Of a DNA stretch of 41,513 bases, positions 3,197-38,463 are shown in pieces. The stretch's first letter is position 1, and each line of letters begins with the position of its first letter. Source of the stretch: a virus; the IMG/VR virus record IMGVR_UViG_3300025030_000220, positions 1 to 41,513 of that record. One strand, 5' to 3'. Made by a program: the position numbers and the translations under genes. The notes under the pieces were generated by a model that ran no database searches, was not told where the DNA came from, and saw nothing but the letters and a program-made list of their open reading frames with translations.

Positions 3197-3225
3197 ATAA
3201 TATCAAGATATAGATAATATGTCAA
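3197..3225 (-). promoter_or_regulatory. Sigma70 promoter, TTGACA-17-TATTAT, leaderless start
   Basis: On the - strand TTGACA is at 3225-3220, the spacer is 17 bp and TATTAT is at 3202-3197. Six bases (AGATAT) separate it from the ATG at 3190, so the transcript should start at about the A of the start codon. Confidence 0.8.
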
Positions 3226-3674
3226 CTATCTTTAATTTCTTCTCCGTAGTCGGGTAAGCATCTACCGTTTAAGTGGTCTAACTCGTGAGTAAAAATTATC
3301 GCATCTAATCCTTTTAATTTGAAGGAACGCTCAATGTTGTTAATATCTTTCCAGTGTGCCCATCCATAGGGTGCGCGGTTTACTTTATAAAGTTTATTAG
3401 GTACAGAGTAGCATCCTTCGGTGACTATATTAGGGGGTGCTTTAACTGGGTTCCATTTAGGATTAAAAATTACGGCTCCTTGCACGGTCATAATCTGCAA
3501 ATCTATTCCAATTTGAGGAGCGGAAATTCCTAATTTCATTCCATAAGTTTGTTTGGCAAGAGCCACCCCTAATTTGCGGACAATAGCCGACCGTTGTTTG
3601 TAGTTTATTTTTTTAAAATCAACAGGTTCTGCGATTCTTTTAAGGCGCGGGTCGGGATAAATAAGAATGGACAT
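3222..3674 (-). CDS. def: Peptide deformylase
   Basis: 150 aa from the ATG at 3674 (MSILIYPDPRLKR). All three peptide deformylase motifs are present: motif 1 as GISAPQ (49-54), motif 2 as EGCYS (86-90; C88 binds metal) and motif 3 as HELDH (130-134; metal ligands and catalytic Glu). The enzyme removes the formyl group from nascent proteins. Phage-encoded versions, known mainly from aquatic phages, lack the usual C-terminal helix, as here. A longer form from 3770 (with a basic N-terminus rich in aromatic residues) is also open and overlaps the nuclease gene by 20 nt; a GGAG lies 10 nt before the 3674 ATG, which favours the short form. Confidence 0.88.
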   Translation of the reverse strand: MSILIYPDPRLKRIAEPVDFKKINYKQRSAIVRKLGVALAKQTYGMKLGISAPQIGIDLQIMTVQGAVIFNPKWNPVKAPPNIVTEGCYSVPNKLYKVNRAPYGWAHWKDINNIERSFKLKGLDAIIFTHELDHLNGRCLPDYGEEIKDS

Positions 3675-3750
3675 TGGTTTGTTTCTCCAGTCAAGGAGTC
3701 TTTTTGCTAACTTAAAACGAGTCCATAAAAAGATTGCTTTGGGTAGATTT

Positions 3751-4068
3751 TTAAATAACACCCAATACATCGTCAAGCGAATACGCAAGGATTGCAATTC
3801 CGCCATAGGCTTTGATTCTAGCGAGGAATTCAAGTTGTTCTGGGGTTGGTTTCCCCCCTTTTTTTTTGACTTCAATTGCGACAAAAGTTCCTTGAGGCGA
3901 ACATGCGATAATGTCCGAAATCCCTTTCTCGCCACTGGGTAAGGGGATATATTTTCCTGTGTCTTTTTTGTAGATTCCAACATTGCGATGATTTATTACG
4001 ATAAATTTTTTAATACGAAGATAATCTGCTATTGTTTTTTTGATTTGTTGTTCAGAGATTTCTTGCAT
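3751..4068 (-). CDS. VRR-NUC domain nuclease
   Basis: 105 aa, a complete stand-alone VRR-NUC (PD-(D/E)XK superfamily). Visible are the N-terminal helix with E6/Q8, 'GISD' (49-52), the catalytic 'AIEVK' (64-68) and 'TPEQLEFLARI' with Q78, then 'GGIAILAYSLDDV'. Phage VRR-NUC proteins are thought to act on branched or flapped DNA in replication or recombination. TATAAT lies six bases before the ATG, inside the upstream methylase gene's end, again without a ribosome-binding site. The downstream deformylase follows in the same direction. Confidence 0.85.
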   Translation of the reverse strand: MQEISEQQIKKTIADYLRIKKFIVINHRNVGIYKKDTGKYIPLPSGEKGISDIIACSPQGTFVAIEVKKKGGKPTPEQLEFLARIKAYGGIAILAYSLDDVLGVI

Positions 4069-4080: not shown

Positions 4081-4659
4081 TCATTTCATTGCCTTAAACG
4101 CTATATCACTTTCTATTTCATCTCCCCATGCATCCCATCCTTTCACTTTTTCTCTTGCGAAGAGTTCTATGCGGGGTAAATCGCCCATCAATTCTACAAT
4201 TTTTTCTCTTATAATCAATGGTTTGGCTGAATGTTCTCCTAAATGACTAATTGTTAAATTGGGGACAAAACAACTTTTTCTTTTTGGTTTCCCTTTGGTT
4301 GCTAATAAACATATTTCTGGATTCCCTCTTGTCCAATATCCCAACCCAAAGTGCCATCCATCTGATTTTTTGTTTTGTTTGACCCAAGTGAAAGCGACTG
4401 TTTTATATTCAAACCCCCACGACTTTATTGTTTGTAATGCTTCTTGAAGTTTAGGATAAGTTGCCCACAAAAATAAGATACAGTTTTTATCAGCAATTTC
4501 TCCAATAGGAAGATTATAAATATCTTTATTGTCCATTACATTATAAGGACTCCTTCCGTTTTTTCTCGCCCATTTTTCTCCTCTTGTTGCGAGTTCTTTC
4601 ATTGACCAATTTTTGAAACGCCATGGCGGGTCTGCCAATATGATTTGATATTTGAACAT
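4081..4659 (-). CDS. MT-A70 family adenine methyltransferase
   Basis: 192 aa. The DPPW catalytic motif is at residues 10-13, and the MT-A70 core follows: 'LFLWAT' (about 62-67), 'WVKQNKKSDGWHFGLGYWTRGNPEICLLATKG' context and 'EHSAKP' near 143-148 with 'RIELFARE' at the end. This is the phage N6-adenine DNA methylase type, which modifies adenine in DNA using SAM and may protect against host restriction. No partner restriction enzyme is visible. It lies between a small coiled-coil protein and the VRR-NUC gene; the ATG follows the previous stop by four bases. Confidence 0.9.
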   Translation of the reverse strand: MFKYQIILADPPWRFKNWSMKELATRGEKWARKNGRSPYNVMDNKDIYNLPIGEIADKNCILFLWATYPKLQEALQTIKSWGFEYKTVAFTWVKQNKKSDGWHFGLGYWTRGNPEICLLATKGKPKRKSCFVPNLTISHLGEHSAKPLIIREKIVELMGDLPRIELFAREKVKGWDAWGDEIESDIAFKAMK

Positions 4660-12362: not shown

Positions 12363-12983
12363 TTATAAAATATATTTTTTAATGTTATTTTTATAAAAAA
12401 TGTTTGGACATCTAACACTGTTTATCCATTCTTTTTTGGGCGGGGTTGCCCCTTTACTTGAATCTGCTCCAATAATTGCCAAATCAATTCCTGCCAAATC
12501 TAACGAACTCATATTACCCAAGAGAGGTTCAAAACTGATAAATTTATAAATTTCTTTCGGTAGTTGTTTTAAATAATTCAACCTTTCTTGACTAGCAAAA
12601 TCTATTGTTACACCACATTGCACATTTTTTAAAAAAAATGGCGACTTTGGATTGGTTAGACATTCAAATTCCAAATAGCGTTTCGGATTTTTTGTTAAAA
12701 ATTGGAAAGTGTGTCTCGGATTTTTTAAAATAGTTGCCATTATTGTTTTAATCCACTCATCTTTTACCCAATCTCCGAATAAATCAGCCATTGAGCAGAT
12801 GAAAATCTTGTTCGGCTTCTTTAGTTTGTACGGCTCGGTTATTCTTTCTGAATGAAAAGTTGGCTGGAAATGCCCATCAAATCTCATCGCAATACGCCGA
12901 GCGTAGCAATATGAACAGCCATTAAGACATCCCGTAATTGGATTCCAAGTATAGTTAGTCCACTCAATTTTTGTTTTGTTCAT
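12363..12983 (-). CDS. DUF5131 / phage Gp37-Gp68 family protein (radical-SAM-like)
   Basis: 206 aa. The N-terminus 'NKTKIEWTNYTWNPITGCLNGCSYCYARRIA' holds C19-x3-C23-x2-C26, the iron-sulfur binding pattern of radical SAM proteins, and 'WNPITGC...CYA' is diagnostic of the Gp37/Gp68 (DUF5131) family. Other family signatures are 'FICSMADLFGDWV' and 'HTFQFLTKNPKR'. The substrate is unknown; some relatives occur with DNA-modification genes. The C-terminus after about residue 170 is shorter than in many relatives. It lies next to the tRNA. Confidence 0.85.
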   Translation of the reverse strand: MNKTKIEWTNYTWNPITGCLNGCSYCYARRIAMRFDGHFQPTFHSERITEPYKLKKPNKIFICSMADLFGDWVKDEWIKTIMATILKNPRHTFQFLTKNPKRYLEFECLTNPKSPFFLKNVQCGVTIDFASQERLNYLKQLPKEIYKFISFEPLLGNMSSLDLAGIDLAIIGADSSKGATPPKKEWINSVRCPNIFYKNNIKKYIL

Positions 12984-13078: not shown

Positions 13079-13080
13079 TT

Positions 13081-13151
13081 GCTAAGTGAGAGGAATTGAA
13101 CCTCCGTCTTTCCTGTGAAACAGCAACGCTCTACCACTGAGCTACACTCGG
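13081..13151 (-). tRNA. tRNA-Glu (anticodon UUC)
   Basis: A 71-nt cloverleaf on the - strand: D-arm GCTCAGTGGTAGAGC is canonical, U8-A9 are present, the anticodon loop is GTTTCAC (TTC at 34-36, U33, A37) and the T-arm is GGAGG-TTCAATT-CCTCT. The acceptor stem has one C-A mismatch at the second pair, the anticodon stem has one G-G mismatch, and position 32 is an unusual G. CCA is not encoded. The mismatches lower confidence that it is fully functional. Confidence 0.75.
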
Positions 13152-13205
13152 CATATAAGAGTAGATTCTAGGCTCTACTCACGCCTTTTTTTTGTTAAAG
13201 TGCAA

Positions 13206-18376: not shown

Positions 18377-18398
18377 TTAACTTTCTAACTCCATCCTA

Positions 18399-18458
18399 CT
18401 CTTATTTTTTATGTTGTCAAGCGTATAACTGTGTATAACTATCAATAACATAAGATAA
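18399..18458 (-). promoter_or_regulatory. Main early promoter with four 10-bp repeats
   Basis: On the - strand TTGACA (18420-18415) has TAGGAT 16 bp downstream (18398-18393), giving a leader of about 260 nt before 18129. Abutting the -35 are four 10-bp units in perfect register from 18420 to 18458, each ending in ATAAC on the + strand (GTTAT on the - strand). One contains TTATACACA, a perfect DnaA-box consensus match. The layout is the same as at 6795-6850 and 11207-11263. A second TTGACA (18481-18476) lies further upstream. Confidence 0.7.
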
Positions 18459-18700
18459 CATTATATTTTAAACATTGTCAAGTTTATTGATTGGATTAGT
18501 ATTGACTAGGTTTAATTTATGTGTTGTGCTATTTTGGGGCGCTTATATTTTAGTTTAAATAGATATTTAATTAGGCGCGGTTATAGAGAAGATAAAGGAA
18601 GGCAAGGAGAGGGGAGAACTCTCATTTTTATCTCCTCCCCTCACAACACATATCCTATCTTTGTCAAGCGAACACTATCTTAATCTCTTCCAATTCCGAT

Positions 18701-19306
18701 TTTAGGTAGTGGGTATGTTCCTTTCAAAGGTTTGTAAGTCGTAGGGGACACCCCAACCTAATTTATATATCTGGGGTAAAAGTCTTTTATATACTGGGGC
18801 TTATGGTTTTAGGCAGTCTCTTCCCCCTCTTGTATTGGTAAAAACAAGAGTAGCCATATTTATATGGTTTAGTCCCTCTATGGAGTTTTACTAGGTCTTT
18901 GGTGTCTCTTCTCGCTAATATAGTGAGAAGAAGAATATATTGGGTGTGAATGGGATGTCATTTAGAGCGACATCAACCCAGTATAGCCTCCCTTACCTTA
19001 TTCGACTTTATTAGTTGTTACCTTCTAATAAAATCGAGCGCGCTCGGTTGCGTATCCGCTTTGGTAAGACCCCTTGCGCAACAGTCAGGCATCAAGCCTT
19101 CATCGAGATTCCTTTATTCGACTCCTGCGAGTGAATAATAGGTTTTCGCCTAGGAATTGAGGAGGAATGGTTACCTCCAGTCTGTGGTCTCCATAGGATT
19201 GAACAGGTGTTATTTATCAATATATAGGGATTATGCCGACATTCCACGAACTTTAGGCAAAATGTGTATATTGAATTGTTGTTTTCTTGTAATAAGTTTA
19301 CAAGAC
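18701..19306 (+). ncRNA. Large ornate structured noncoding RNA candidate (GOLLD/ROOL-like scale)
   Basis: About 600 nt without a gene but packed with stems: 18827-18833/18844-18850 (7 bp), 18908-18917/18921-18930 (10 bp), nested 18937-18945/18976-18984 and 18954-18959/18969-18974, 19003-19014/19025-19036 (11 of 12), palindrome 19035-19046, 19047-19052/19077-19082, 19116-19136, 19139-19142/19149-19152, 19161-19165/19174-19178 and 19285-19292/19298-19305. GTGG..ATGT near 18709 can pair with ACATTCCAC (19240-19248), closing the whole. G-U pairs in two stems favour the + strand, one stem favours -. A terminator follows. Large phage RNAs of this size are GOLLD and ROOL; membership cannot be decided here. 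Confidence 0.65.
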
Positions 19307-19346
19307 ACATAAAACCCCCAAGAATTACTCCTTGGGGGTTTTATGT
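19307..19346. terminator. Strong symmetric terminator after the RNA candidate
   Basis: A 16-bp perfect stem (19307-19322 with 19331-19346), C5/G5 core with A4/T4 flanks and an 8-nt loop. No gene precedes it on the + strand for over 1 kb, so it most likely ends a noncoding transcript. Confidence 0.88.
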
Positions 19347-19352
19347 AAGAAA

Positions 19353-19406
19353 CTCGATAAAAACAATGCTTCTGGTATTATCACCAGAACTCAACACATT
19401 GTCGAG
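19353..19406. ncRNA. Compound stem-loop before the late operon
   Basis: CTCGA/TCGAG (19353-19357 with 19402-19406), CAATG/CATTG (19364-19368 with 19397-19401) and TTCTGGT/ACCAGAA (19370-19376 with 19383-19389) nest in one another. A second hairpin, ATATGCGA/TCGCATAT, lies at 19453-19460/19472-19479. Roles unknown. Confidence 0.5.
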
Positions 19407-19502: not shown

Positions 19503-19544
19503 TTGTCAAGTGACAAATGTGAAAATTTGTGCTATATTGTTTTT
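19503..19544 (+). promoter_or_regulatory. Late-operon promoter, GTGACA-17-TATATT, with palindrome
   Basis: GTGACA (19510-19515), a 17-bp spacer and TATATT (19533-19538) end six bases before the ATG at 19545, so the terminase operon may start leaderless. A palindrome TTGTCA-AG-TGACAA (19503-19516) covers the -35, and ACAAAT/ATTTGT (19514-19519/19525-19530) lies in the spacer. Both are candidate operators for a repressor or activator. Confidence 0.75.
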
Positions 19545-20324
19545 ATGGAAGAAAATGATAAAGGAAGTAAAATTGAGGAAGGAACTAAAGTTGATTTAAA
19601 ATATGCAAAAACATCAATGCTGGTAGGGAAGCAATTTTACGGCGGCACTTTTGAACGATTTATGAAAGTGGGAGAGGTAAAAGAATTTATCGCCGCCTTT
19701 AAAGATTTTTATTACCAAGAAAAAATTAAAGACCCCAATGCTCGCTTGGCGGAAATTCTACAGAATTTTAATAAAGAATTTTGCGCACCGAGCGGAAAGA
19801 AATTTCATCCTTACACGGCTCAAGTCGCATGTTGGCGCGCCAAATGGGATTTGGATTTGATGCAACAACTGCAGGATAAAGAATTAAAAATTATTGAGCG
19901 TAAGAATATTCATCAGCTTATCAAGACGCGCGACGATGAACGGAATTTGGTTCTCGGCGCTCCTGACGATAATTCTTTGGAGGCGGGAGTAAGAACTCTT
20001 GGAGGAGAGCTTTTAAATGATGCGACCCAAATGCTCCGCGACGACCAGGAGTTGGAGGAAATTTATGACGATGAAACTCTTATTAAAAGAAGAAATTATA
20101 TTGTTAATGTATTTTCCCATGCCACTAAACTTGTTCATGGCAAAGCGGCGTTGATGTTGAAAGCCTCGGCGGAGAAGAGAGATACGGCTGGATTTTTAAT
20201 GAGTCTATTAGCAAGAGGAACGGCAGGTAAGATGTCAGACGAGGAGATGAATCTTTTAAAAAGCGCTTATGCGCCAAAATTAAACAGTGAAGCCATTAAA
20301 CAAAATGAACCAGCCGCACATTAA
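19545..20324 (+). CDS. Putative terminase small subunit
   Basis: 259 aa from ATG 19545, chosen because the promoter -10 ends six bases before it. The protein is helical and charged, with a compact N-terminal domain ('EFIAAFKDFYYQEKIKDPNARLAEILQNFNKEF...KKFHPYTAQVACWRAKWDLDLM') that could be a DNA-binding HTH. Its position directly before, and overlapping by 20 nt, the large terminase gene is the main evidence. No sequence family is recognised with confidence. Confidence 0.65.
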   Translation: MEENDKGSKIEEGTKVDLKYAKTSMLVGKQFYGGTFERFMKVGEVKEFIAAFKDFYYQEKIKDPNARLAEILQNFNKEFCAPSGKKFHPYTAQVACWRAKWDLDLMQQLQDKELKIIERKNIHQLIKTRDDERNLVLGAPDDNSLEAGVRTLGGELLNDATQMLRDDQELEEIYDDETLIKRRNYIVNVFSHATKLVHGKAALMLKASAEKRDTAGFLMSLLARGTAGKMSDEEMNLLKSAYAPKLNSEAIKQNEPAAH

Positions 20325-21996
20325 CCGATTCAGTTTCGATTCTCTGGCTAAAAACTTTCTAGTATCCACTATGGACGCGGAAACAAAGCAGAGATTTGTC
20401 GAAATGATTGAATCTGAACGTCGAGGAAGAGAAGATATTATTTATTTCTCTGAAGAAACACTTGGTGTCCCTTTGAATGATTATCAAAAGAAATGGTTAA
20501 TTAGAACCACAACCCCGCGCAATAAATGGATGGAAAAGTTCGGCGACAAAATTGAAGATATTGGGGGGTTTATTTTTGGTTCAAACATCTCTTCTATAGG
20601 CAACCAGTCTGGAAAAACTGTAGGTATCGCCATTAAGCATATTTGGTTCAATAAATATAAAATCGGAATGGAGCTAGAGGCGAATCTTATTAACCAGGCG
20701 CATTACGCAACTTTGAATATTTCTCCCCACAGTCGCCAAACCAAAGCATGTTATCAACATATTAAAGATATTTTGAGCGGGCAGTTTATTATAGATGAAG
20801 ACGGCAAAAAAAGATTAAATAATTTAAGTCCTTTGATGCGGGAATTTATTGTCGGTGACAATACCAATTTGGGAGAGATACGCTTTGCTAATAAATCCGT
20901 GGCTTATTCCGTTCCCACTGGTCAAGACCAAGCATCATCCCTTGCTGGCGCGCAGTTTGGATATATTAGTTATGACGAGTGCAGTCAATCGCTTCACCTT
21001 AAAGAAGAATTGGGCGCGAAGATTTTATCTCGTCTTATTAAATATGGATGTTGCCTCGATTTGATTGCCACCCCAGAGGTGGATAGTCCAAGCCACCAGT
21101 ATTATCTCCACATCGTGCGGATGGGAATGAAAGGTATTCAAGGATGGTGGGCTTTAACCAATATGGGAATGGATGATAATAAATTTATTCCCAAAGAACA
21201 AAGGGAAAGAGCCAAGGCTTCTCTTTTGGCTACTGATAAAAAAAGATATAGACAAGTTGTAAAAGGTGAATTCATCACTTCTGGCAAGCGTTTTTTTGAC
21301 AGTTCGGAAATAGAGAACTTGTGGAAATTGCCAGGGAAAAAAGATTGCCAAAAAAACGGAAAATATCTACTTGTCGCCGATTGGGGGTTTTCTGATAGTG
21401 GAGACGAATCGGTATTTATGATTCTTGACTATACAAATTTCCACATTAGTGGCAAAATAGATGTGGCGAATCACGAATCAATTAAAGGCGGTTCACCCCA
21501 AATGCAGTTCTCTCTTCTTCGCACTCTTTATGACCAATATACTTGGTATGACGATGATGGAGTCACTGCTCATCTCCCAACCTTTTTGACCGATGCGCAA
21601 GGACTTGGCGGAGTGGTTATTAAAAAATTATTGGCGCTGCTCAAACCGCATAGTTTTGAGATTGATAAAGATGAGGCGCTTTTTCTGACAAAGGGAGCAA
21701 TGTCAAAAGGCAGAGATTATATTGAATCCGAAGTGGACGGAGCTATAATTGAGAAGAATCCAGATTATGGAATTGTTCGTTCTTATTACATTGATGAATT
21801 AAACGAGCAGTTAGGCTCTTACCATGTGGAAGACAAAAAATTGACAACTGATTTTACAATGACTTTGATGATGGGAATTTCTTATATTGTTAAAAAAATG
21901 CCGAAGACACCTATTAATAAAGTTGTATTCAATCATTTGGCGGGATATAATGCCAGTATTATTAAATCCCCGACGCAAATAATTTTACATAAATAA
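20305..21996 (+). CDS. terL: Terminase large subunit
   Basis: 563 aa from ATG 20305 (a GTG at 20287 is also open). ATPase: Walker A-like GNQSGKT (99-105) and Walker B 'YISYDE' (220-225). Nuclease: 'LLVADWGFSDSGDES' near 356-370 and 'FLTDAQGLGG' near 427-436 supply RNase H-type acidic residues. The enzyme cuts and packages DNA into the prohead at the portal vertex. Walker A lacks the usual Arg before the Gly. It starts inside the small terminase gene and is followed 6 nt later by the portal. Confidence 0.92.
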   Translation: MNQPHINRFSFDSLAKNFLVSTMDAETKQRFVEMIESERRGREDIIYFSEETLGVPLNDYQKKWLIRTTTPRNKWMEKFGDKIEDIGGFIFGSNISSIGNQSGKTVGIAIKHIWFNKYKIGMELEANLINQAHYATLNISPHSRQTKACYQHIKDILSGQFIIDEDGKKRLNNLSPLMREFIVGDNTNLGEIRFANKSVAYSVPTGQDQASSLAGAQFGYISYDECSQSLHLKEELGAKILSRLIKYGCCLDLIATPEVDSPSHQYYLHIVRMGMKGIQGWWALTNMGMDDNKFIPKEQRERAKASLLATDKKRYRQVVKGEFITSGKRFFDSSEIENLWKLPGKKDCQKNGKYLLVADWGFSDSGDESVFMILDYTNFHISGKIDVANHESIKGGSPQMQFSLLRTLYDQYTWYDDDGVTAHLPTFLTDAQGLGGVVIKKLLALLKPHSFEIDKDEALFLTKGAMSKGRDYIESEVDGAIIEKNPDYGIVRSYYIDELNEQLGSYHVEDKKLTTDFTMTLMMGISYIVKKMPKTPINKVVFNHLAGYNASIIKSPTQIILHK

Positions 21997-22002
21997 AAAC
22001 AC

Positions 22003-23760
22003 ATGGGATTACTAACTTTTATAAAAGGAGGAATGTCGGTTGGAGAAACAAATCCTCGCGCTGTTGAATTGGCGAAAGAAATTACTTCTCTTGAAGGGAC
22101 AATCCGTCTCGATTGGACTCGTCGCGTGTATGGGGACGGCGTATATTCTGGGTACCAAACACTCCGAGATTTCTACAAAGGAAAACAATGGTCATTTAGG
22201 AAAGAAGGCGGAGGCACAATGCGCACCTACAATTATTGTTTCACTATTGTGGAGAATATGACGGCGTTCTTGACCAATGAACCTCCTCAAATTTCTTGTC
22301 CCCCTAGAAGTGTTACTGACCCAGTAGAGCGAAGTCTGGCGGAAGGTCGCACAAAACTTTTGGATGCGATTCACGACGACAACGCGCTTTCTCTTGTTTT
22401 TCAAAGAGCCGTCCGCACAGGGTCAATCACGGGCGATGCTTTTATTTTCGGAGCTATTCCCACCTTTAAAGCAAATGAAGACGGAGTAAAAACTTTTGAC
22501 CGCATTCGTTATTGGAATATCGAAAAGCCAGAACATATCCAAGTTCTTTGGAAAGATGAAAACTTCACAGAGATGGACGGCTTTATAAAAAAATATCGCA
22601 TCTCCGTCGAATCGGCTAAACGGCTTTTTAAAGAAGAACTCAAAGATAAGAATTTTCATATTCAAGCGGACTATGACGCGGAGAATCCAAGCGAAACCCA
22701 AAAATCAGAAGTGCCGATGGTAACAGTTAAAGAATTGTGGATGGAGGATGAGTATTTATTGATGTTTAATAATGACAACAAACCTATTCATTATGTGAAA
22801 CACGATTTTGGTTTTGTTCCACTCCAATATGTCCCCAACATTCATCTTCCTGGCGAACCCAAAGGGACATCAGATATTGAACATGAGCTTGACCCCCAGC
22901 AAGAATACAATGAAAGGGCATCGGATATGGCGGACATAATCAAGGAAATTTCCAAACCTGCCTATTGGGGCAAGAACCTTGACAATCTTACAGAAGTAAG
23001 GTCTGGTCAAATTGTGATTTATCAAGTTGGTGATGATGGCGACATTCAAGCGATGCCGAAAAGCGGTAATGTTTTTCCAATGGAAAGTTATTTAAACGAC
23101 CGCAAAAACGACATTATCGCGCTTTCGGGTTTAAACCAAGTTCTCTATCCAGGCAATCAAGTTTTACAAGCAACAGGGCGAGCTCTTTCGGTTGTCATGC
23201 AGGGAGTCAACAACAAAGTTTCTCTTCGCAAAGAATGGTGGATTCGCGCCCTTAAAGAACTCAATAAATCAATTCTCTTTCATGCCGAACAATTTATACC
23301 GCAAGCGAAACTTTTAATCGGCGGATTTTATAAAACTGATGTCTTTATCAGCTCGGTACTTTTGAGAAGTGTGGTTGATGAAATTTCCAAATTCCAAGCC
23401 AAGGTACAATCCTTGACAACTACGCAACACAATGTCGGAATAAGCAATCCAAGCGAGGAACAAAAATTAATGAAAGAAGAATTACAGGATGAGATTTTAG
23501 CCACTGAAATCGCCAAACAGCCTGGTCTTCTTCATCAAATTCTCGCTGACCGAGTGGCTCAAATGAATCAAGCCACAGGAGGTGGAATTACGGGAGCAGG
23601 AATGGGTGGTATAAATGGACAACCTCCACCAGTGACTAGCGATGAGGATACTGCGGCGGGAGTTCCGCCAGCGGCGGGAGTCGCCTCGCCTGTAAGCCCG
23701 AAAGCCGCAATAGCGGGCAACGCCGCCAGAGCGGGCGGAGTGGCGGTAAAACCAAAATAA
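22003..23760 (+). CDS. Portal protein (SPP1-like family)
   Basis: 585 aa. 'LRDFYKGKQWSFRKEGGGTMRTYNYCFTIVENMTAFLTNEPPQI' near the N-terminus, 'HDFGFVPLQYVPNIHLPGEPKGTSDIEHELDPQQEYNERASDMADII' in the clip/stem region, and 'SGLNQVLYPGNQVLQATGRALSVVMQGVNNKVSLR' are typical of phage portal proteins. The C-terminal 60 residues are Gly/Pro/Ala-rich and probably disordered. It forms the dodecameric DNA gate of the head. No Shine-Dalgarno site precedes the ATG. Confidence 0.88.
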   Translation: MGLLTFIKGGMSVGETNPRAVELAKEITSLEGTIRLDWTRRVYGDGVYSGYQTLRDFYKGKQWSFRKEGGGTMRTYNYCFTIVENMTAFLTNEPPQISCPPRSVTDPVERSLAEGRTKLLDAIHDDNALSLVFQRAVRTGSITGDAFIFGAIPTFKANEDGVKTFDRIRYWNIEKPEHIQVLWKDENFTEMDGFIKKYRISVESAKRLFKEELKDKNFHIQADYDAENPSETQKSEVPMVTVKELWMEDEYLLMFNNDNKPIHYVKHDFGFVPLQYVPNIHLPGEPKGTSDIEHELDPQQEYNERASDMADIIKEISKPAYWGKNLDNLTEVRSGQIVIYQVGDDGDIQAMPKSGNVFPMESYLNDRKNDIIALSGLNQVLYPGNQVLQATGRALSVVMQGVNNKVSLRKEWWIRALKELNKSILFHAEQFIPQAKLLIGGFYKTDVFISSVLLRSVVDEISKFQAKVQSLTTTQHNVGISNPSEEQKLMKEELQDEILATEIAKQPGLLHQILADRVAQMNQATGGGITGAGMGGINGQPPPVTSDEDTAAGVPPAAGVASPVSPKAAIAGNAARAGGVAVKPK

Positions 23761-31509: not shown

Positions 31510-32646
31510 ATGGCTTTAGCTGCAACAACTCCTTTAGCGTCTTATGACCAAAGCGCTGGTGAGTTTCTCGACCTTTCTAATGAACTTGCGGAGATAATCA
31601 GACGGGACAATGTTTCGTTCTTATCTCGCGTTGGTATCAGTGGAGAGGCGACAGAAACCACCCATTCTTGGATGGAGGATTCGCTTAATGCGAATACGGT
31701 TACCCTTGATGAATCGGGTTTTGATTCATCTGAAACGGATATGACTTTCGTATCCACCACTCCTCTTCGGATTGGTTCTTTGCTCCGAAATGTGTCGGAG
31801 GCTGGAAAGACTGAAGTTATTCAAGTTACTTTAGTGGATTCTGCTACTATCTGTACAGTTGTTCGAGGTTATGGTTCCACCACTGGTGAAGCTCATAGCA
31901 CGGGTTCAACTTGGAATGTTATCAATCCCCAACAAGAAGGACAGGATGCTCCTACGGATATAAGTAAAGTTCGCACGAAGGTGTCGAATTATACTCAAAT
32001 CTTCCAATATGGAATCAATGTGTCGCACACAATGAGGTCTGTATTGCAGGCGGGAGTAGCCGATGAGTTCACTTTCCAGGTTGCTCGAAGGCTTATGGAA
32101 GCCATGAGAGAGCTTGATGCTTCTCTTGTTGGTGGTATTAAATCAGCTTCTGCTGGTTCGGATTCTGTTTATCGTTCAATGGGCGGTATTCTTGAATTTG
32201 CCAACCAAGCGACTGGTAATTTAAACACCACTTCTGAAGCCCTTTCTCTTTCCGTCGTAAATGCGATGGCAAAGCAGATTTGGGATGACGGCGGATACCC
32301 GAACTTTATCCTCGTTGGAGGCAAACAGAAGAGAGCAATCTCTACTTTTGACCAGTCAGCAAGGCGTTCTGTTTATGACAGCACAGTCGCTGGATATGTA
32401 GTGGACAGAATTATTACTGATTTGGGTTTTGTGCTTGATGTTATTGTTGACCCTTGGATGCCCGATGACACTGCCATTGTTGGCGATTTGAACAAGTGCC
32501 GTGTTCTTCCTCTTCGCGGTTCTGCGATGAGGGCAGAAGACCTCGCCAAGACTGGCGCTTCTTTCAAAGCCCAGATTTATGGTGAATACACCGCTGAATT
32601 CAGAAACGCAACATCGGCTTTTGCCCACCACAATAATTTGACCTAG
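31510..32646 (+). CDS. Major capsid protein, SU10/DUF5309 type
   Basis: 378 aa. The order 'NELAEIIRRDNVSFLSRVGISGEATETTHSWMEDSLNANTVTL', then an inserted beta module (about 65-140, 'RIGSLLRNVSEAGKTEVIQVT...TVVRGYGSTTGEAHS'), then 'KVRTKVSNYTQIFQYGINVSHTMRSV...DEFTFQVARRLMEAMRELDASLVGGI' and 'PNFILVGGKQKRAISTFDQSAR' is characteristic of SU10-like HK97-fold capsid proteins (DUF5309). It builds the icosahedral head. A long gap (60 nt) with a small hairpin (AAAGAC/GTCTTT) precedes the ATG. Confidence 0.9.
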   Translation: MALAATTPLASYDQSAGEFLDLSNELAEIIRRDNVSFLSRVGISGEATETTHSWMEDSLNANTVTLDESGFDSSETDMTFVSTTPLRIGSLLRNVSEAGKTEVIQVTLVDSATICTVVRGYGSTTGEAHSTGSTWNVINPQQEGQDAPTDISKVRTKVSNYTQIFQYGINVSHTMRSVLQAGVADEFTFQVARRLMEAMRELDASLVGGIKSASAGSDSVYRSMGGILEFANQATGNLNTTSEALSLSVVNAMAKQIWDDGGYPNFILVGGKQKRAISTFDQSARRSVYDSTVAGYVVDRIITDLGFVLDVIVDPWMPDDTAIVGDLNKCRVLPLRGSAMRAEDLAKTGASFKAQIYGEYTAEFRNATSAFAHHNNLT

Positions 32647-34322: not shown

Positions 34323-35132
34323 ATGACAAATGTAAAACTCTCGGTAATAATCCCCTCATATCGTGACCCCCTCCTTTTTAAAACAATACAATCTCTTATT
34401 GATAATTCCGAACTTGCCAAAGAAGAACTTGAAATTATTGCGGTTTGGGATGGATATTATCCATCATCAAAACTGATTATTGAAGACCCCAGAGTTCGTT
34501 ATATTCATTTGGGTAAGAATCGGGGGATGAGAGGAGCTATTAACGCTGGTATGGAAATTGCCAGAGGAGAATTTGTCGCGCGGCTTGACGAACATTGCAG
34601 TTTTGGAAAAGGGTATGACAGAATTTTAACTGAAACTTGCGAACCAAATTGGATAGTCACTCCGACTCGTTTTTTTCTTGACCCCATAAAATGGGAATTA
34701 ATGGATATTCCTCCCGTTAATTTTTGTAAATTAGTCATCAAAGGGAACCCGCCAAAATTTAGCGGTGAAGTGTGGAAAGAAAAGGATGAGGAAATGAAAG
34801 ACATAATGATAGGTGAAACCATGGCTATGCAAGGAAGTTTTTGGATAATGCCGAGAGCTTGGTGGCAAAAAGTTATTGGAGAAATGCAGACCGAAGGATA
34901 TGGTCATCTAATTCAAGATTCTCACGAAATAGTTTTTAAGACTTGGAAAGCGGGCGGAAAATTAATGTTGAATAAAAATACATGGCACAGCCATAAACAC
35001 AGGGATTTCCCACGTATGCACAACAATGGAACTCCCGAAAATCCAGCAAATTGTCAAAACGGATATAAATATGCCCTAGATATTTGGGAAAATTATTATC
35101 GAAATGAAATTGTGCCAATATGGAAAATCTAA
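34323..35132 (+). CDS. GT2-family glycosyltransferase
   Basis: 269 aa. 'VKLSVIIPSYRDPLLFKTIQSLIDNS' is the nucleotide-binding start of the GT-A fold; 'GKNRGMRGAINAGMEIARGEFVARLDEHC' provides the DxD-like metal site as DEH (about 88-90). 'MQGSFWIMPRAWW' and 'NTWHSHKHR' follow, as in GT2 enzymes of phages. It would transfer a sugar from a nucleotide sugar. It leads a five-gene cassette lying between two serine-rich virion proteins. Confidence 0.82.
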   Translation: MTNVKLSVIIPSYRDPLLFKTIQSLIDNSELAKEELEIIAVWDGYYPSSKLIIEDPRVRYIHLGKNRGMRGAINAGMEIARGEFVARLDEHCSFGKGYDRILTETCEPNWIVTPTRFFLDPIKWELMDIPPVNFCKLVIKGNPPKFSGEVWKEKDEEMKDIMIGETMAMQGSFWIMPRAWWQKVIGEMQTEGYGHLIQDSHEIVFKTWKAGGKLMLNKNTWHSHKHRDFPRMHNNGTPENPANCQNGYKYALDIWENYYRNEIVPIWKI

Positions 35133-35830
35133 CTTGTTTATTTTTAACACTTAACAAAGTTCCATGGCAGGAATACCATCGAAAAATAATGCTTGAAGCG
35201 ATAGGGAATTATCCTCTTATTACTATTTCGCGTCTTTCAATGGATTTACCAGGCATTCAATTAAGACAAAATGAAGAACAATCTCACGACAAGATTTATA
35301 AATTAATGTTGCAAGGCGCTAAAATAGCAACGACGGATTATATTGCGATGGTAGAAGACGATATGTTATATCATAAAGACCATTTTGAACTTCGCCCTCC
35401 ACTTGATACTTTTGGTTATAATTGGAATCGTTGGTCTCTCTTTACTTTTGGAGAACCTACTTATTCTTTCAAAAGAAGATATTGCAATGGATGCAGTATA
35501 TTGCCAAGATTGGAAATGATTGATGCGCTGAAAGAAAGGTTTGCCAAGTGGAAAGAGATACCGCATGTTTTAAATGGGGAACTGGGATATGAGAAAGTTG
35601 AGAAAAATTTGGGAGTGAAAGTGAGAAAATCTATGCCAATGTATTCCAAAACCCCCGTGGTTCAAATACATCATATTTATGGTACACCAGGAATTGGGAA
35701 AATACACTTAAAGCAAGGAGATACTACAGACCTTGAAGCGCGAAAAGTAAGAAAGAGAATGGGAATGATGCGGGCATATTCAATTCCGTATTGGGGCGAA
35801 TCTAAAGAACTCGTAAAACATTTTACATGA
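35120..35830 (+). CDS. GT-A-type glycosyltransferase-like protein, tandem copy 1
   Basis: 236 aa. 'IYKLMLQGAKIATTDYIAMVEDDMLYHKDHFELRP' holds an acidic metal-site motif (VEDD, about 79-82) typical of GT-A glycosyltransferases. 'YNWNRWSLFTFGEPTYSFKRR' and 'MGMMRAYSIPYWGESKELVKHF' are shared with the next gene, so the pair is a tandem duplication with about one third identical residues by eye. It overlaps the GT2 gene by 13 nt. The sugar is unknown. Confidence 0.7.
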   Translation: MENLTCLFLTLNKVPWQEYHRKIMLEAIGNYPLITISRLSMDLPGIQLRQNEEQSHDKIYKLMLQGAKIATTDYIAMVEDDMLYHKDHFELRPPLDTFGYNWNRWSLFTFGEPTYSFKRRYCNGCSILPRLEMIDALKERFAKWKEIPHVLNGELGYEKVEKNLGVKVRKSMPMYSKTPVVQIHHIYGTPGIGKIHLKQGDTTDLEARKVRKRMGMMRAYSIPYWGESKELVKHFT

Positions 35831-36504
35831 GCGATATAACTGCGATTTTTCTAACTCAAAATGAAGTACCAGAGAGCTGGGCTGCCTATCATCGGGGGGT
35901 ATTATTAGAATCTTTGAACGGCGCGCCGCTTATTATTATGTCAAGAAAGCCGATGGATTGGGGCACCATAAACATGATACAAGACAAACCAAAGAGTTTG
36001 AGTAATATATATTGGCAGTTACTCCGCGCCGCCAAAGCCTCGACTACGGACTATGTCGCCGTAGTCGAGGACGATTCTTTATATCCATTCGAGCATTTTC
36101 TTCAAAGACCAAATAAAAACTGTATCGGCTACAACATGAATCATTGGTCAGTCTTTACACACGGGGAGCCTATTTATTCATGGAGAAATAGGCGGGGTAA
36201 TTATTCCATGTTATCATATAGGAAACTGGTCATTGAAGCCCTTGAGGAGCGTTTCGCCAAATATCCAAATGGCACGCCAGACAATATCACGGGCGAAATC
36301 GGCAGACCGATGGTAGAACACAATATGGGTATTGCACTTCGAGAAGTAGAAGAATTTGAAACCACGGTGAGCATTATAAATTTTAACCATCCTTACGCCT
36401 CTGATGATTTGCAATTAAGACAGCGAAAAGTTCACGGTCACATTAGAGCATACGACATACCCCTTTGGGGAAAAGCCAGCGAGTTAATTAAAAGATTTAA
36501 GTAA
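35827..36504 (+). CDS. GT-A-type glycosyltransferase-like protein, tandem copy 2
   Basis: 225 aa, paralogue of the previous gene and started by an ATGA overlap. Shared motifs: 'AKASTTDYVAVVEDDSLYPFEHFLQRP' (VEDD metal site), 'YNMNHWSVFTHGEPIYSWRNRRG' and 'RKVHGHIRAYDIPLWGKASELIKRF'. Divergence between the copies suggests different acceptors or sugars. Its middle contains 'GTPDNITGEIGRPMVEHNMGI', comparable to 'VLNGELGYEKVEKNLGV' of copy 1. Confidence 0.7.
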   Translation: MSDITAIFLTQNEVPESWAAYHRGVLLESLNGAPLIIMSRKPMDWGTINMIQDKPKSLSNIYWQLLRAAKASTTDYVAVVEDDSLYPFEHFLQRPNKNCIGYNMNHWSVFTHGEPIYSWRNRRGNYSMLSYRKLVIEALEERFAKYPNGTPDNITGEIGRPMVEHNMGIALREVEEFETTVSIINFNHPYASDDLQLRQRKVHGHIRAYDIPLWGKASELIKRFK

Positions 36505-36555
36505 AATATGACATTTTCAAAAGGATATACATCTTGCAACTGATAAACTAAAAAA

Positions 36556-37074
36556 ATGGACATAAATCAAGTAAGAAAACTAAATGCCAATTTGAGCAAG
36601 AACTATACTACGCATATGACTATGCTTATAAAAGTTCTACTTGCGAGTAAAGGAGATGTGGTGGAGTGCGGTGGAGGAGTATTCAGCACCCCCTTGCTTC
36701 ATTGGATGTGCAAATTTATGGATAGAGAATTGATTACTTATGAAAATGACCCTGCTTATTTTGCATTTGAACACACTTTTCAAAGTCGTCAACACAGAAT
36801 ACGATTCGTAGATGATTGGGATAAAATAAAGATACCTGACCAAGTGAGTGTTGTCTTTATTGACCATCATCCGCCAGAACGAAGAATGGTAGAAACCCTG
36901 CGCTTCAAAGATGTCGCTGATTATATTGTGATTCACGATACCGAGAGACCGAGCAGAAAATACAATCTGCCAGAGGTGTTTGCGCAGTTCAAGTATCGGT
37001 ATGATTGGAAGGAGTGCCGACCCTGGACGAGTGTGTTGTCACAGCGTTTTGATGTTGAAAAATTTCTAAAATGA
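36556..37074 (+). CDS. Class I SAM methyltransferase-like protein
   Basis: 172 aa. 'GDVVECGGGVFSTPLLHWMC' (about 33-52) is a glycine-rich motif I of the Rossmann fold, 'ELITYENDPAYF' ends in the acidic residue that usually binds SAM ribose, and 'VSVVFIDHHPPERR' and 'DYIVIHDTERPSRK' follow. It resembles FkbM-like or small-sugar methyltransferases of glycan clusters. Methylating the added sugar or the acceptor is an inference from the neighbours. Confidence 0.65.
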   Translation: MDINQVRKLNANLSKNYTTHMTMLIKVLLASKGDVVECGGGVFSTPLLHWMCKFMDRELITYENDPAYFAFEHTFQSRQHRIRFVDDWDKIKIPDQVSVVFIDHHPPERRMVETLRFKDVADYIVIHDTERPSRKYNLPEVFAQFKYRYDWKECRPWTSVLSQRFDVEKFLK

Positions 37075-37517
37075 AAAGAATACCACTTACAAAAGGAAGG
37101 TGTGCGGTAGTGGATGACGAGGATTTTGCTATGCTCAATAAGTTAAAATGGCACTACAGTGGAGGATATGCACGAAGTAATATCAGCGTTCAAGGAGGAA
37201 GAAAAAGGATTATTTCTATGCACAGTATTATCAATTGCACCCCAAGTGGGTTTTTTACTGACCATATTGATAGAAACACTCTTAATAATACAAGAAAAAA
37301 TCTTCGCACTGTTACGCGCTCTCAAAATGCTTTTAACATTAACATTCCGAAGAATAATACGTCTGGGTATATTGGTGTGCATTGGCATAAATATGCGAAA
37401 AAGTGGCGTAGCTATATAGAATTGAACGGTAGGCGTATTCATCTTGGATTGTATAAATCAATAAAATTAGCAATTAAAGCAAGAGATAATGCAAAACAAA
37501 AATACCATGCAATATGA
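37071..37517 (+). CDS. HNH endonuclease with AP2 DNA-binding domain
   Basis: 148 aa, in an ATGA overlap with the methyltransferase. 'SMHSIINCTPSGFFTDHIDRNTLNNTRKNLRTVTRSQNAFN' is the HNH catalytic region (MH, DHID, then the late N). 'NTSGYIGVHWHKYAKKWRSYIELNGRRIHLGLYKSIKLAIKARD' is an AP2-type beta-sheet domain. This is the common phage homing endonuclease, inserted within the cassette. Confidence 0.9.
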   Translation: MKRIPLTKGRCAVVDDEDFAMLNKLKWHYSGGYARSNISVQGGRKRIISMHSIINCTPSGFFTDHIDRNTLNNTRKNLRTVTRSQNAFNINIPKNNTSGYIGVHWHKYAKKWRSYIELNGRRIHLGLYKSIKLAIKARDNAKQKYHAI

Positions 37518-38463
37518 CCTCGCGGTAATCATCCCCGCCCGCGCCGAAGAATTTTTGAAAAACACGGTGGAAGATTTGCTGAAAAATAAGCGCGGTAATA
37601 CTGAAATTATCGTTGGGCTTGACGGACAATGGAGTAATCCACCGATAGACCAACACCCAGATGTAAATGTGATTTATGTTCCAGAATCTATTGGTCAACG
37701 CGCAATCTCAAATACGTGTGCCAGATTGACAAAAGCAAAATACATTATGAAACTCGATGCCCACTGTTCAGTTGATGAAGGATTTGATGTAAAAATGTTG
37801 GATGCTTTCAAAGAGGTTGGTGACAATGTTGTGATGGCTCCCACTATGAGGAACCTTCATGTATTTGATTGGATATGTAAGTGTGGCTTTACTCATTATC
37901 AAGATAAGGGAAATATCTGTCCACAGTGTTCAAGTCAGATGGACAAGAAAATAGTATGGCAACCGAGACGTGGCACCAGGAATTATTCCTACTGCTTTGA
38001 TAGCGAGCCGCACTTCCAGTATTTTCGTGAGTTTAGTCGCCGTCCAGAAGGACAGGGCGACATTACAGAATCAATGAGCTTACAAGGGAGTTGTTTCGTA
38101 ATGACGAAGGAAAAGTATTTTGACCTTAACATTGATGATGAAACAATGGGTTCGTGGGGAAGTCAAGGTTTAACTGTTGCCTGTAAATTTTGGTTATCGG
38201 GTGGAAAAGTATTGGTAAATCATCTCACGTGGTACTCGCATTGTTTCCGCACAAAATCAGCCAATGGTTTTGGGTTTCCTTATCCCCAATCTGGCAGACA
38301 AGTAGATAGTGCCAAAAAAATGGCGCGGGACTTATTTTTTGAGAATAAATGGGAGAAAGCCATACACTCATTATCTTGGCTGATTGAGAAGTTTAGCCCA
38401 GTGCCTGGTTGGACAAAAGAAGATATTGAGAGGATAAAGACTAATGAAAAAAATGTGGTATAA
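37507..38463 (+). CDS. GT2-family glycosyltransferase with zinc-ribbon insert
   Basis: 318 aa from ATG 37507 (an ATG at 37489 is also open). 'YDLAVIIPARAEEFLKNTVEDLLKN' starts the GT-A fold, 'IGQRAISNTCARLTKAKYIMKLDAHC' gives the DAH metal site. An inserted zinc ribbon, 'CKCGFTHYQDKGNICPQCSSQ', follows. 'SMSLQGSCFVMTKEKYF' and 'HLTWYSHCFRT' match the C-terminal pattern of the 269-aa GT2 gene. The zinc ribbon may help recognise the acceptor protein. Confidence 0.8.
   Translation: MQYDLAVIIPARAEEFLKNTVEDLLKNKRGNTEIIVGLDGQWSNPPIDQHPDVNVIYVPESIGQRAISNTCARLTKAKYIMKLDAHCSVDEGFDVKMLDAFKEVGDNVVMAPTMRNLHVFDWICKCGFTHYQDKGNICPQCSSQMDKKIVWQPRRGTRNYSYCFDSEPHFQYFREFSRRPEGQGDITESMSLQGSCFVMTKEKYFDLNIDDETMGSWGSQGLTVACKFWLSGGKVLVNHLTWYSHCFRTKSANGFGFPYPQSGRQVDSAKKMARDLFFENKWEKAIHSLSWLIEKFSPVPGWTKEDIERIKTNEKNVV

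What the first reader, a model, noticed from the sequence alone, without database searches (positions are those of the whole stretch)
18701..19346. Candidate giant ornate noncoding RNA in the early/late divide
About 600 nt of non-coding sequence holds at least ten clear stems, several nested, plus a possible closing pair between about 18709 and 19248, and ends in a 16-bp terminator that has no upstream gene to terminate. Compensating G-U pairs appear in at least two stems on the + strand. Phages are known to carry large ornate RNAs (GOLLD, ROOL) of this size; this one could be a new member or a new class.
Basis: partly seen in the sequence, partly recalled or inferred. Interest (0 to 1): 0.87.

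Follow-up and report, generated by a model that had tools for sequence, protein, structure and literature searches.

The report
Giant structured RNA in uncultured phages
A group of uncultured phages carries, just beside the DNA-packaging (terminase) genes, a 650-1000-base RNA whose shape is kept by evolution although its sequence is not, and it is a new RNA family that is probably copied from the strand opposite to the one first proposed.

Summary
The structured non-coding region is real. Phages related through terminase and portal carry it at the same place, between leftward early genes and terS. In a 330-nt core (four phages), 20 of 36 base pairs show two-sided compensatory changes (0/500 shuffles; slid controls 0-3), including long-range helices. 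The left-end domain is shared by 12 phages. L017/L020 independently give 28 compensated pairs. Nothing in Rfam matches, GOLLD and ROOL included.

The 16-bp 'terminator' has its T-tract, GNRA loops and 18 of 20 G-U pairs on the minus strand. Near-consensus leftward sigma-70 promoters lie just right of it (17 hits). No plus-strand promoter lies left of the RNA in any phage (0 hits in 6.5 kb). I read it as a leftward RNA, about 19370 to 18690, beginning with that hairpin. The claimed 18709-19248 closing pair has no support. Internal G-U pairs alone do not settle the strand.

Most likely it is a free-standing, early-made large ncRNA working like GOLLD/ROOL but unrelated to them. Function and 3' end are inferred. 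Runner-up: an anti-termination leader for the early operon.

The parts
18690..19370 (-). Whole structured RNA, leftward, about 680 nt; 5' end about 19370 and 3' end about 18690 (both inferred)
   Evidence: conservation and covariation; strand from promoter map and hairpin; ends not measured
19377..19405 (-). Proximal leftward promoter candidate TCGACA-17-GATAAT (10/12)
   Evidence: equivalents about 30 nt from the hairpin in L009, L014, L017, L019, L020, L021, L056
19482..19509 (-). Distal leftward promoter candidate TTGACA-16-TATACT with extended -10 (11/12)
   Evidence: the same kind in L009 (2899), L014 (629), L004 (4120)
19305..19347 (-).
   Evidence: -29.4 (minus) against -26.2 (plus) kcal/mol; G-U pairs 18:2 in favour of minus across 12 phages
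19189..19196 (-). Core closing helix H1, 5' arm (pairs with 18878-18885)
   Evidence: 3 of 8 pairs compensated on both sides in 4 phages
18878..18885 (-). Core closing helix H1, 3' arm
19161..19178 (-). Hairpin inside H1 (19178-19174 with 19161-19165)
   Evidence: 4 of 5 pairs compensated
19149..19153 (-). Helix H2, 5' arm (pairs with 18891-18895)
   Evidence: CUAGG / CUGGG / CAAGG with matching partners
18891..18895 (-). Helix H2, 3' arm
19047..19082 (-). Stem-loop inside the core (19078-19082 with 19047-19051)
   Evidence: 3 of 5 pairs compensated, 100% paired
18954..18974 (-). Hairpin with invariant loop (UUUAGAG on +, CUCUAAA on -)
   Evidence: 5 of 7 pairs compensated in 6 phages, covariation score 0.76 against 0.22 in shuffles (0/500); shifted variants in L004 and L014
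18697..18767 (-). Left-end domain (3' end of the minus RNA), fixed length without gaps in 12 phages: P1 plus P2 hairpin
   Evidence: model R1 finds it upstream of terS in this phage group, with unused weak hits in L026 and L028 at the expected place
19510..19538 (+). terS promoter GTGACA-17-TATATT; -10 ends 7 nt before the ATG at 19545, so terS appears leaderless
   Evidence: the same in most relatives; shows terS does not depend on a transcript through the structured region
18393..18481 (-). Separate early-gene promoters (18481-18452, 18420-18393)

Best explanation
A free-standing large structured RNA, about 680 nt in this phage and roughly 650-1000 nt in relatives, transcribed leftward by host sigma-70 RNA polymerase from near-consensus promoters between terS and the RNA, most likely early in infection. 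It begins with a very stable 5' hairpin, folds into a roughly 320-nt core closed by long-range helices and ends in a conserved hairpin domain. I think it acts as RNA, as a particle or scaffold in the manner of GOLLD and ROOL. Shown: conserved structure by covariation; conserved place. Strongly supported: leftward strand and promoters. Inferred: early timing, independence from the early mRNA, the 3' end, and the scaffold or particle role.
For: Core covariation 20 of 36 pairs, 0/500 shuffles, slid controls 0-3; loop hairpin 0/500; L017/L020 28 compensated pairs; left-end domain gap-free in 12 phages, with weaker significance. Promoter map: right zone 17 minus hits; left zone 0 plus hits in 6.5 kb and 19 minus hits belonging to early genes. 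5' hairpin better on minus in 11 of 12, G-U 18:2. Alignment z stronger on minus in 7 of 10 blocks. G-U favours minus 11:3 in strand-neutral helices of 7 bp or more (my tally). terS has its own leaderless promoter, so the region is not needed as its leader. Early genes have their own promoters. Pattern scans of IMG/VR return only this phage group plus L048.
Against: P2 of the left-end domain reads better on plus (U-U-U facing G-G-G), its alignment z favours plus (-16.7 against -9.0), and hairpins private to this phage carry G-U on plus. The 5' hairpin looks like an intrinsic terminator, which would stop the RNA after about 70 nt unless bypassed. No intrinsic terminator marks a 3' end. The z-score comparison between strands is biased by the G+T-rich plus strand. 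No transcript data; host unknown.
Confidence: 0.5

Rival explanations
1. Cis-acting leader of the leftward early operon. Transcription from the right-hand promoters meets the hairpin as an attenuator, and the structured RNA acts on the polymerase (as put RNA of phage HK022 does, recalled from general knowledge) or on a host factor to allow read-through into the early genes.
For: Promoter 25-135 nt before a U-tract hairpin in nearly all relatives; U-tract kept even where it no longer pairs (L004, L006, L020, L021, L023); early genes lie on the same strand downstream; no 3' terminator.
Against: Early genes have their own strong promoters in most phages; gap-free conservation stops at the left-end domain about 540 nt before the first early gene; size is about ten times that of known put elements (general knowledge).
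Confidence: 0.2
2. Plus-strand giant RNA, ending at the 19307-19346 hairpin; the leftward promoter makes a separate small RNA.
For: P2 wobble pairs and G-U in hairpins private to this phage; alignment z of the left-end domain favours plus; this phage's hairpin has T4 on both strands.
Against: No plus promoter to its left in any of 14 phages; poor plus-strand tails after the hairpin in L004, L008, L017, L020, L021, L023; hairpin G-U 18:2 for minus; longest helices favour minus.
Confidence: 0.17
3. Packaging RNA analogue (like phi29 pRNA): an RNA beside the terminase genes that works in the DNA-packaging motor.
For: Invariant neighbourhood of terS and terL in every relative.
Against: Location only. 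These phages have a conventional TerS and TerL (for TerL); the RNA lies on the opposite strand with early-type promoters; no sequence or Rfam match.
Confidence: 0.06
4. DNA-level element (replication origin or packaging site) whose hairpins act as DNA.
For: Lies at the early/late divide; Watson-Crick covariation alone is strand-neutral.
Against: G-U pairs in the 5' hairpin are strand-specific (18:2); promoters and GNRA loops fit RNA; long-range helices about 320 nt apart are unusual for cruciforms.
Confidence: 0.05

Closest known systems
GOLLD RNA (Rfam RF02032)
   Same: Large (many over 800 nt), ornate, carried by phages, unknown function, one well conserved part and one variable part (PMC12286853)
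   Different: No covariance-model match in six of these phages or in Rfam scans; not at a tRNA island (the only tRNA is 5.5 kb away); between early genes and terS; different conserved motifs
ROOL RNA (Rfam RF03087)
   Same: About 570-660 nt, phage or prophage borne, many stems
   Different: No match; location, motifs and 5' hairpin differ. Nanocage assembly not testable here
ICP1 abundant ~800-nt ncRNA (PMC7567579)
   Same: Unannotated large phage ncRNA in a ~1-kb ORF-free gap
   Different: Beside the lysis cluster of a Vibrio phage; homology to it was not tested directly, but the INPHARED phage search found nothing
put RNA of phage HK022 (processive anti-termination; from general knowledge)
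   Same: Structured RNA near an early phage promoter with a terminator nearby (the rival reading)
   Different: put is a short two-hairpin element; this is a 600-1000-nt multi-domain RNA

Membership tests
GOLLD (RF02032) | Match to the family covariance model | tested here: not met
   0 of 6 phage records at E<=10. No known GOLLD genome was run as a positive control
GOLLD (RF02032) | Homo-oligomeric RNA nanocage (14-mer) | not testable with these tools
   needs cryo-EM or mass photometry
GOLLD (RF02032) | Frequent location near tRNA islands | tested here: not met
   single tRNA-Glu at 13080-13152, 5.5 kb away
ROOL (RF03087) | Match to the family covariance model | tested here: not met
   0 of 6 at E<=10; the tool warned that no control genome rang, but Rfam scans also lack it
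ROOL (RF03087) | RNA-only nanocage | not testable with these tools
   needs in vitro assembly
Large ornate phage ncRNA (kind, not a homology family) | Long non-coding RNA with covariation-supported complex structure, phage-borne | tested here: met
   phage context
Large ornate phage ncRNA (kind, not a homology family) | Expressed as a stable RNA | not testable with these tools
   no transcriptome available for these uncultured phages
terS cis-regulatory leader | Located in the terS transcript | tested here: not met
   terS has a -10 box a few nt before its ATG in most relatives; read-through not excluded
Anti-termination leader (put-like) | Structured RNA that suppresses terminators in cis | not tested
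   arrangement compatible; needs in vitro transcription

The most novel reading that the evidence does not exclude
A new class of giant ornate phage RNA, unrelated by sequence to GOLLD and ROOL and in an unrelated phage lineage, made early from host-type promoters and assembling into an RNA-only or RNA-protein particle. It would be an independent third instance of phage giant RNAs.
Probability: 0.35. Interest if true: 0.85.

Novelty: new variant of a known kind. Interest (0 to 1): 0.7.

Why it matters
Giant structured RNAs of phages have no known function, and only a few families are described. A further, unrelated family with a dozen divergent members, a fixed genomic place beside the packaging genes and recognisable promoters gives comparative material to ask what such RNAs do and whether RNA particles are a recurrent phage solution. 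It also warns that the strand of a large ncRNA cannot be read from terminator-like hairpins by eye.

Tried and rejected
Rfam at gathering and relaxed thresholds: only a tRNA and chance hairpin matches. INPHARED phages: no DNA match and no TerL protein match. A first Rfam accession recalled for GOLLD (RF01998) was wrong, a group II intron part; redone with RF02032. I worked on the plus strand until (alignments A3-A11, model R1); conclusions resting on Watson-Crick covariation stand for either strand. Single-sequence z-scores per strand were set aside as biased by the G+T-rich plus strand. G-U against A-C counts in short or single-sequence stems and tetraloop counts in the body were too weak to decide. 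A plus-strand promoter search upstream found nothing conserved. No minus-strand intrinsic terminator at the 3' end. L048 matches the left-end domain weakly with different spacing, in a contig with no sign of kinship: probably chance. Host search: one TerL relative in a Candidatus Levyibacteriota MAG contig, none in 379 other genomes of that phylum, and no RNA match in 8 genomes of its family: host unresolved.

Full report
What the region is. The window is a 41.5-kb record of an uncultured phage. Its left half carries leftward, early-type genes and its right half rightward late genes: terS 19545-20324, terL 20287-21996 (phrog_2), portal 22003-23760 (phrog_64) and major head protein 31510-32646 (phrog_1328) (terS assigned by position). 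Between the first early gene (ends 18156) and terS lie 1.4 kb without a credible gene: the longest ORFs in the structured part are 62 and 72 aa, with only a 30-aa match in the conserved core of one relative.

Is the structure more than chance? The region 18640-19350 folds with z -7.0 on plus and -7.9 on minus. Much of that is the hairpin at 19305-19347: without it z is -2.9 and -3.6. Folding energy alone is therefore moderate evidence. The strong evidence is comparative.

Relatives. Scans of IMG/VR with TerL, portal, TerS and the first early protein gave about 20 related contigs; about 15 cover the gap. In each there is an ORF-poor gap upstream of terS. Sensitive blastn among the gaps found a conserved left-end block in this phage and ten relatives; L056, found later, is the twelfth. 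Interior blocks match between different pairs. The left-end block (18697-18767) aligns without a single gap in 12 phages. A covariance model of it finds it only upstream of terS in this phage group, apart from a weak hit in L048; two of the hits, L026 and L028, were not used to build the model and are weak but lie at the expected place.

Covariation. In the core (18867-19216) of this phage, L019, L024 and L056, RNAalifold finds two nested long-range helices and four local stems. Counted pair by pair, 20 of 36 pairs have two-sided changes, 95% of cells pair, 0 of 500 shuffles reach these values, and sliding the partners by 1-3 columns leaves 0-3 compensated pairs. The hairpin with the invariant UUUAGAG loop has 5 of 7 pairs compensated in six phages. 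The two-sequence alignment L017/L020, only weakly alignable to this phage outside that hairpin and the left end, gives a structure with the same general order (outer closing helix, small hairpin, inner closing helix, loop hairpin towards the 3' side) and 28 compensated pairs. The left-end domain is supported more weakly: P2 has four pairs and P1 three pairs with two-sided changes, but shuffles reach the score in 20 of 500. I regard a conserved structured RNA as established. Interior lengths and domains vary greatly between phages.

Which strand? Four lines point to minus. (1) In the terminal hairpin the T-run follows the stem on the minus strand in all 13 relatives, read by eye, while the plus-strand tails are poor in about half. 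Positions that mismatch as A-C on plus are G-U on minus: 18 G-U on minus against 2 on plus. The minus hairpin is more stable in 11 of 12 scored (one a near tie), and several loops are GNRA only on minus (the L056 row of that call was mis-placed and is ignored). (2) Over 14 phages, near-consensus sigma-70 promoters right of the hairpin number 17 on minus; left of the RNA, where a plus promoter would have to be, there are none on plus in 6.5 kb. (3) Against column-shuffled alignments, the consensus fold is more significant on minus in 7 of 10 blocks. (4) In conserved helices of 7 bp or more, found without favouring a strand, my tally gives 11 sites that are G-U on minus and 3 on plus; a 19-bp helix in L023/L024 is perfect only on minus. 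Against: the P2 wobble pairs and the left-end domain's alignment z favour plus, as do hairpins private to this phage, and short internal stems are neutral. I put minus at about 0.8.

Transcription units. terS has a -10 box a few nucleotides before its ATG in most relatives and is therefore probably leaderless. The early genes have their own leftward promoters left of the RNA. So the RNA need not be a leader of either operon. Two observations keep the leader reading alive: no intrinsic terminator marks a 3' end, and the 5' hairpin has a U-tract that is kept even where it does not pair, as if it terminates.

Mechanism. My best reading is a free-standing RNA made by host polymerase, most likely early, stabilised or gated by the 5' hairpin, folding into a closed core and acting as RNA, like GOLLD and ROOL, whose RNAs form homo-oligomeric nanocages of unknown purpose (PMC12286853). 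The particle or scaffold role is by analogy only. The chief rival is an anti-termination leader.

Known or new. GOLLD (RF02032) and ROOL (RF03087) models do not match, nor does any Rfam family. Three pattern scans of IMG/VR return the family only in this phage group, apart from the doubtful L048. No cultured phage relative exists in the collection searched. Literature searches found no description of this family. It is a new RNA family of a known kind, large ornate phage ncRNAs; whether it shares their way of working is open.

Noticed in passing
L009 3699-6428 and L011 3786-6536: TerL carries an in-frame insertion of about 300-340 aa exactly inside its Walker A motif (GNQ|...HN|SGKT), with terminal motifs of an intein; two unrelated insertions at the same site in two relatives. 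The window's TerL has none.
   Followed up: partly
window 19510-19545: terS appears to be a leaderless gene: the -10 box ends 7 nt before the ATG, likewise in most relatives.
   Followed up: partly
L062 (JACQKO010000017.1): An 84%-identical TerL lies on a contig binned in a Candidatus Levyibacteriota (Patescibacteria) MAG; it may hint at the host or be a binning error.
   Followed up: partly
window 34323-38463: By eye, a run of glycosyltransferase-like genes among the late genes; the products at 35120-35830 and 35827-36504 look like paralogues of each other.
   Followed up: no
window 3222-3983, 4081-4659, 12363-12983: Early genes include a peptide deformylase, an MT-A70 methyltransferase and a DUF5131 protein.
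   Followed up: no
window 18393-18481 and equivalents: Clusters of near-consensus leftward promoters in front of the early genes in most relatives, up to a perfect TTGACA-16-TATAAT in L006.
   Followed up: no
window 18590-18660: A purine-rich GGAGAGGGGAG-NACTCT element about 90 nt left of the RNA recurs in L004 and L019; purpose unknown.
   Followed up: no
L048 110-171: Weak match (25 bits) to the left-end domain with different spacing, in a contig with no sign of kinship to this phage group; probably chance.
   Followed up: partly
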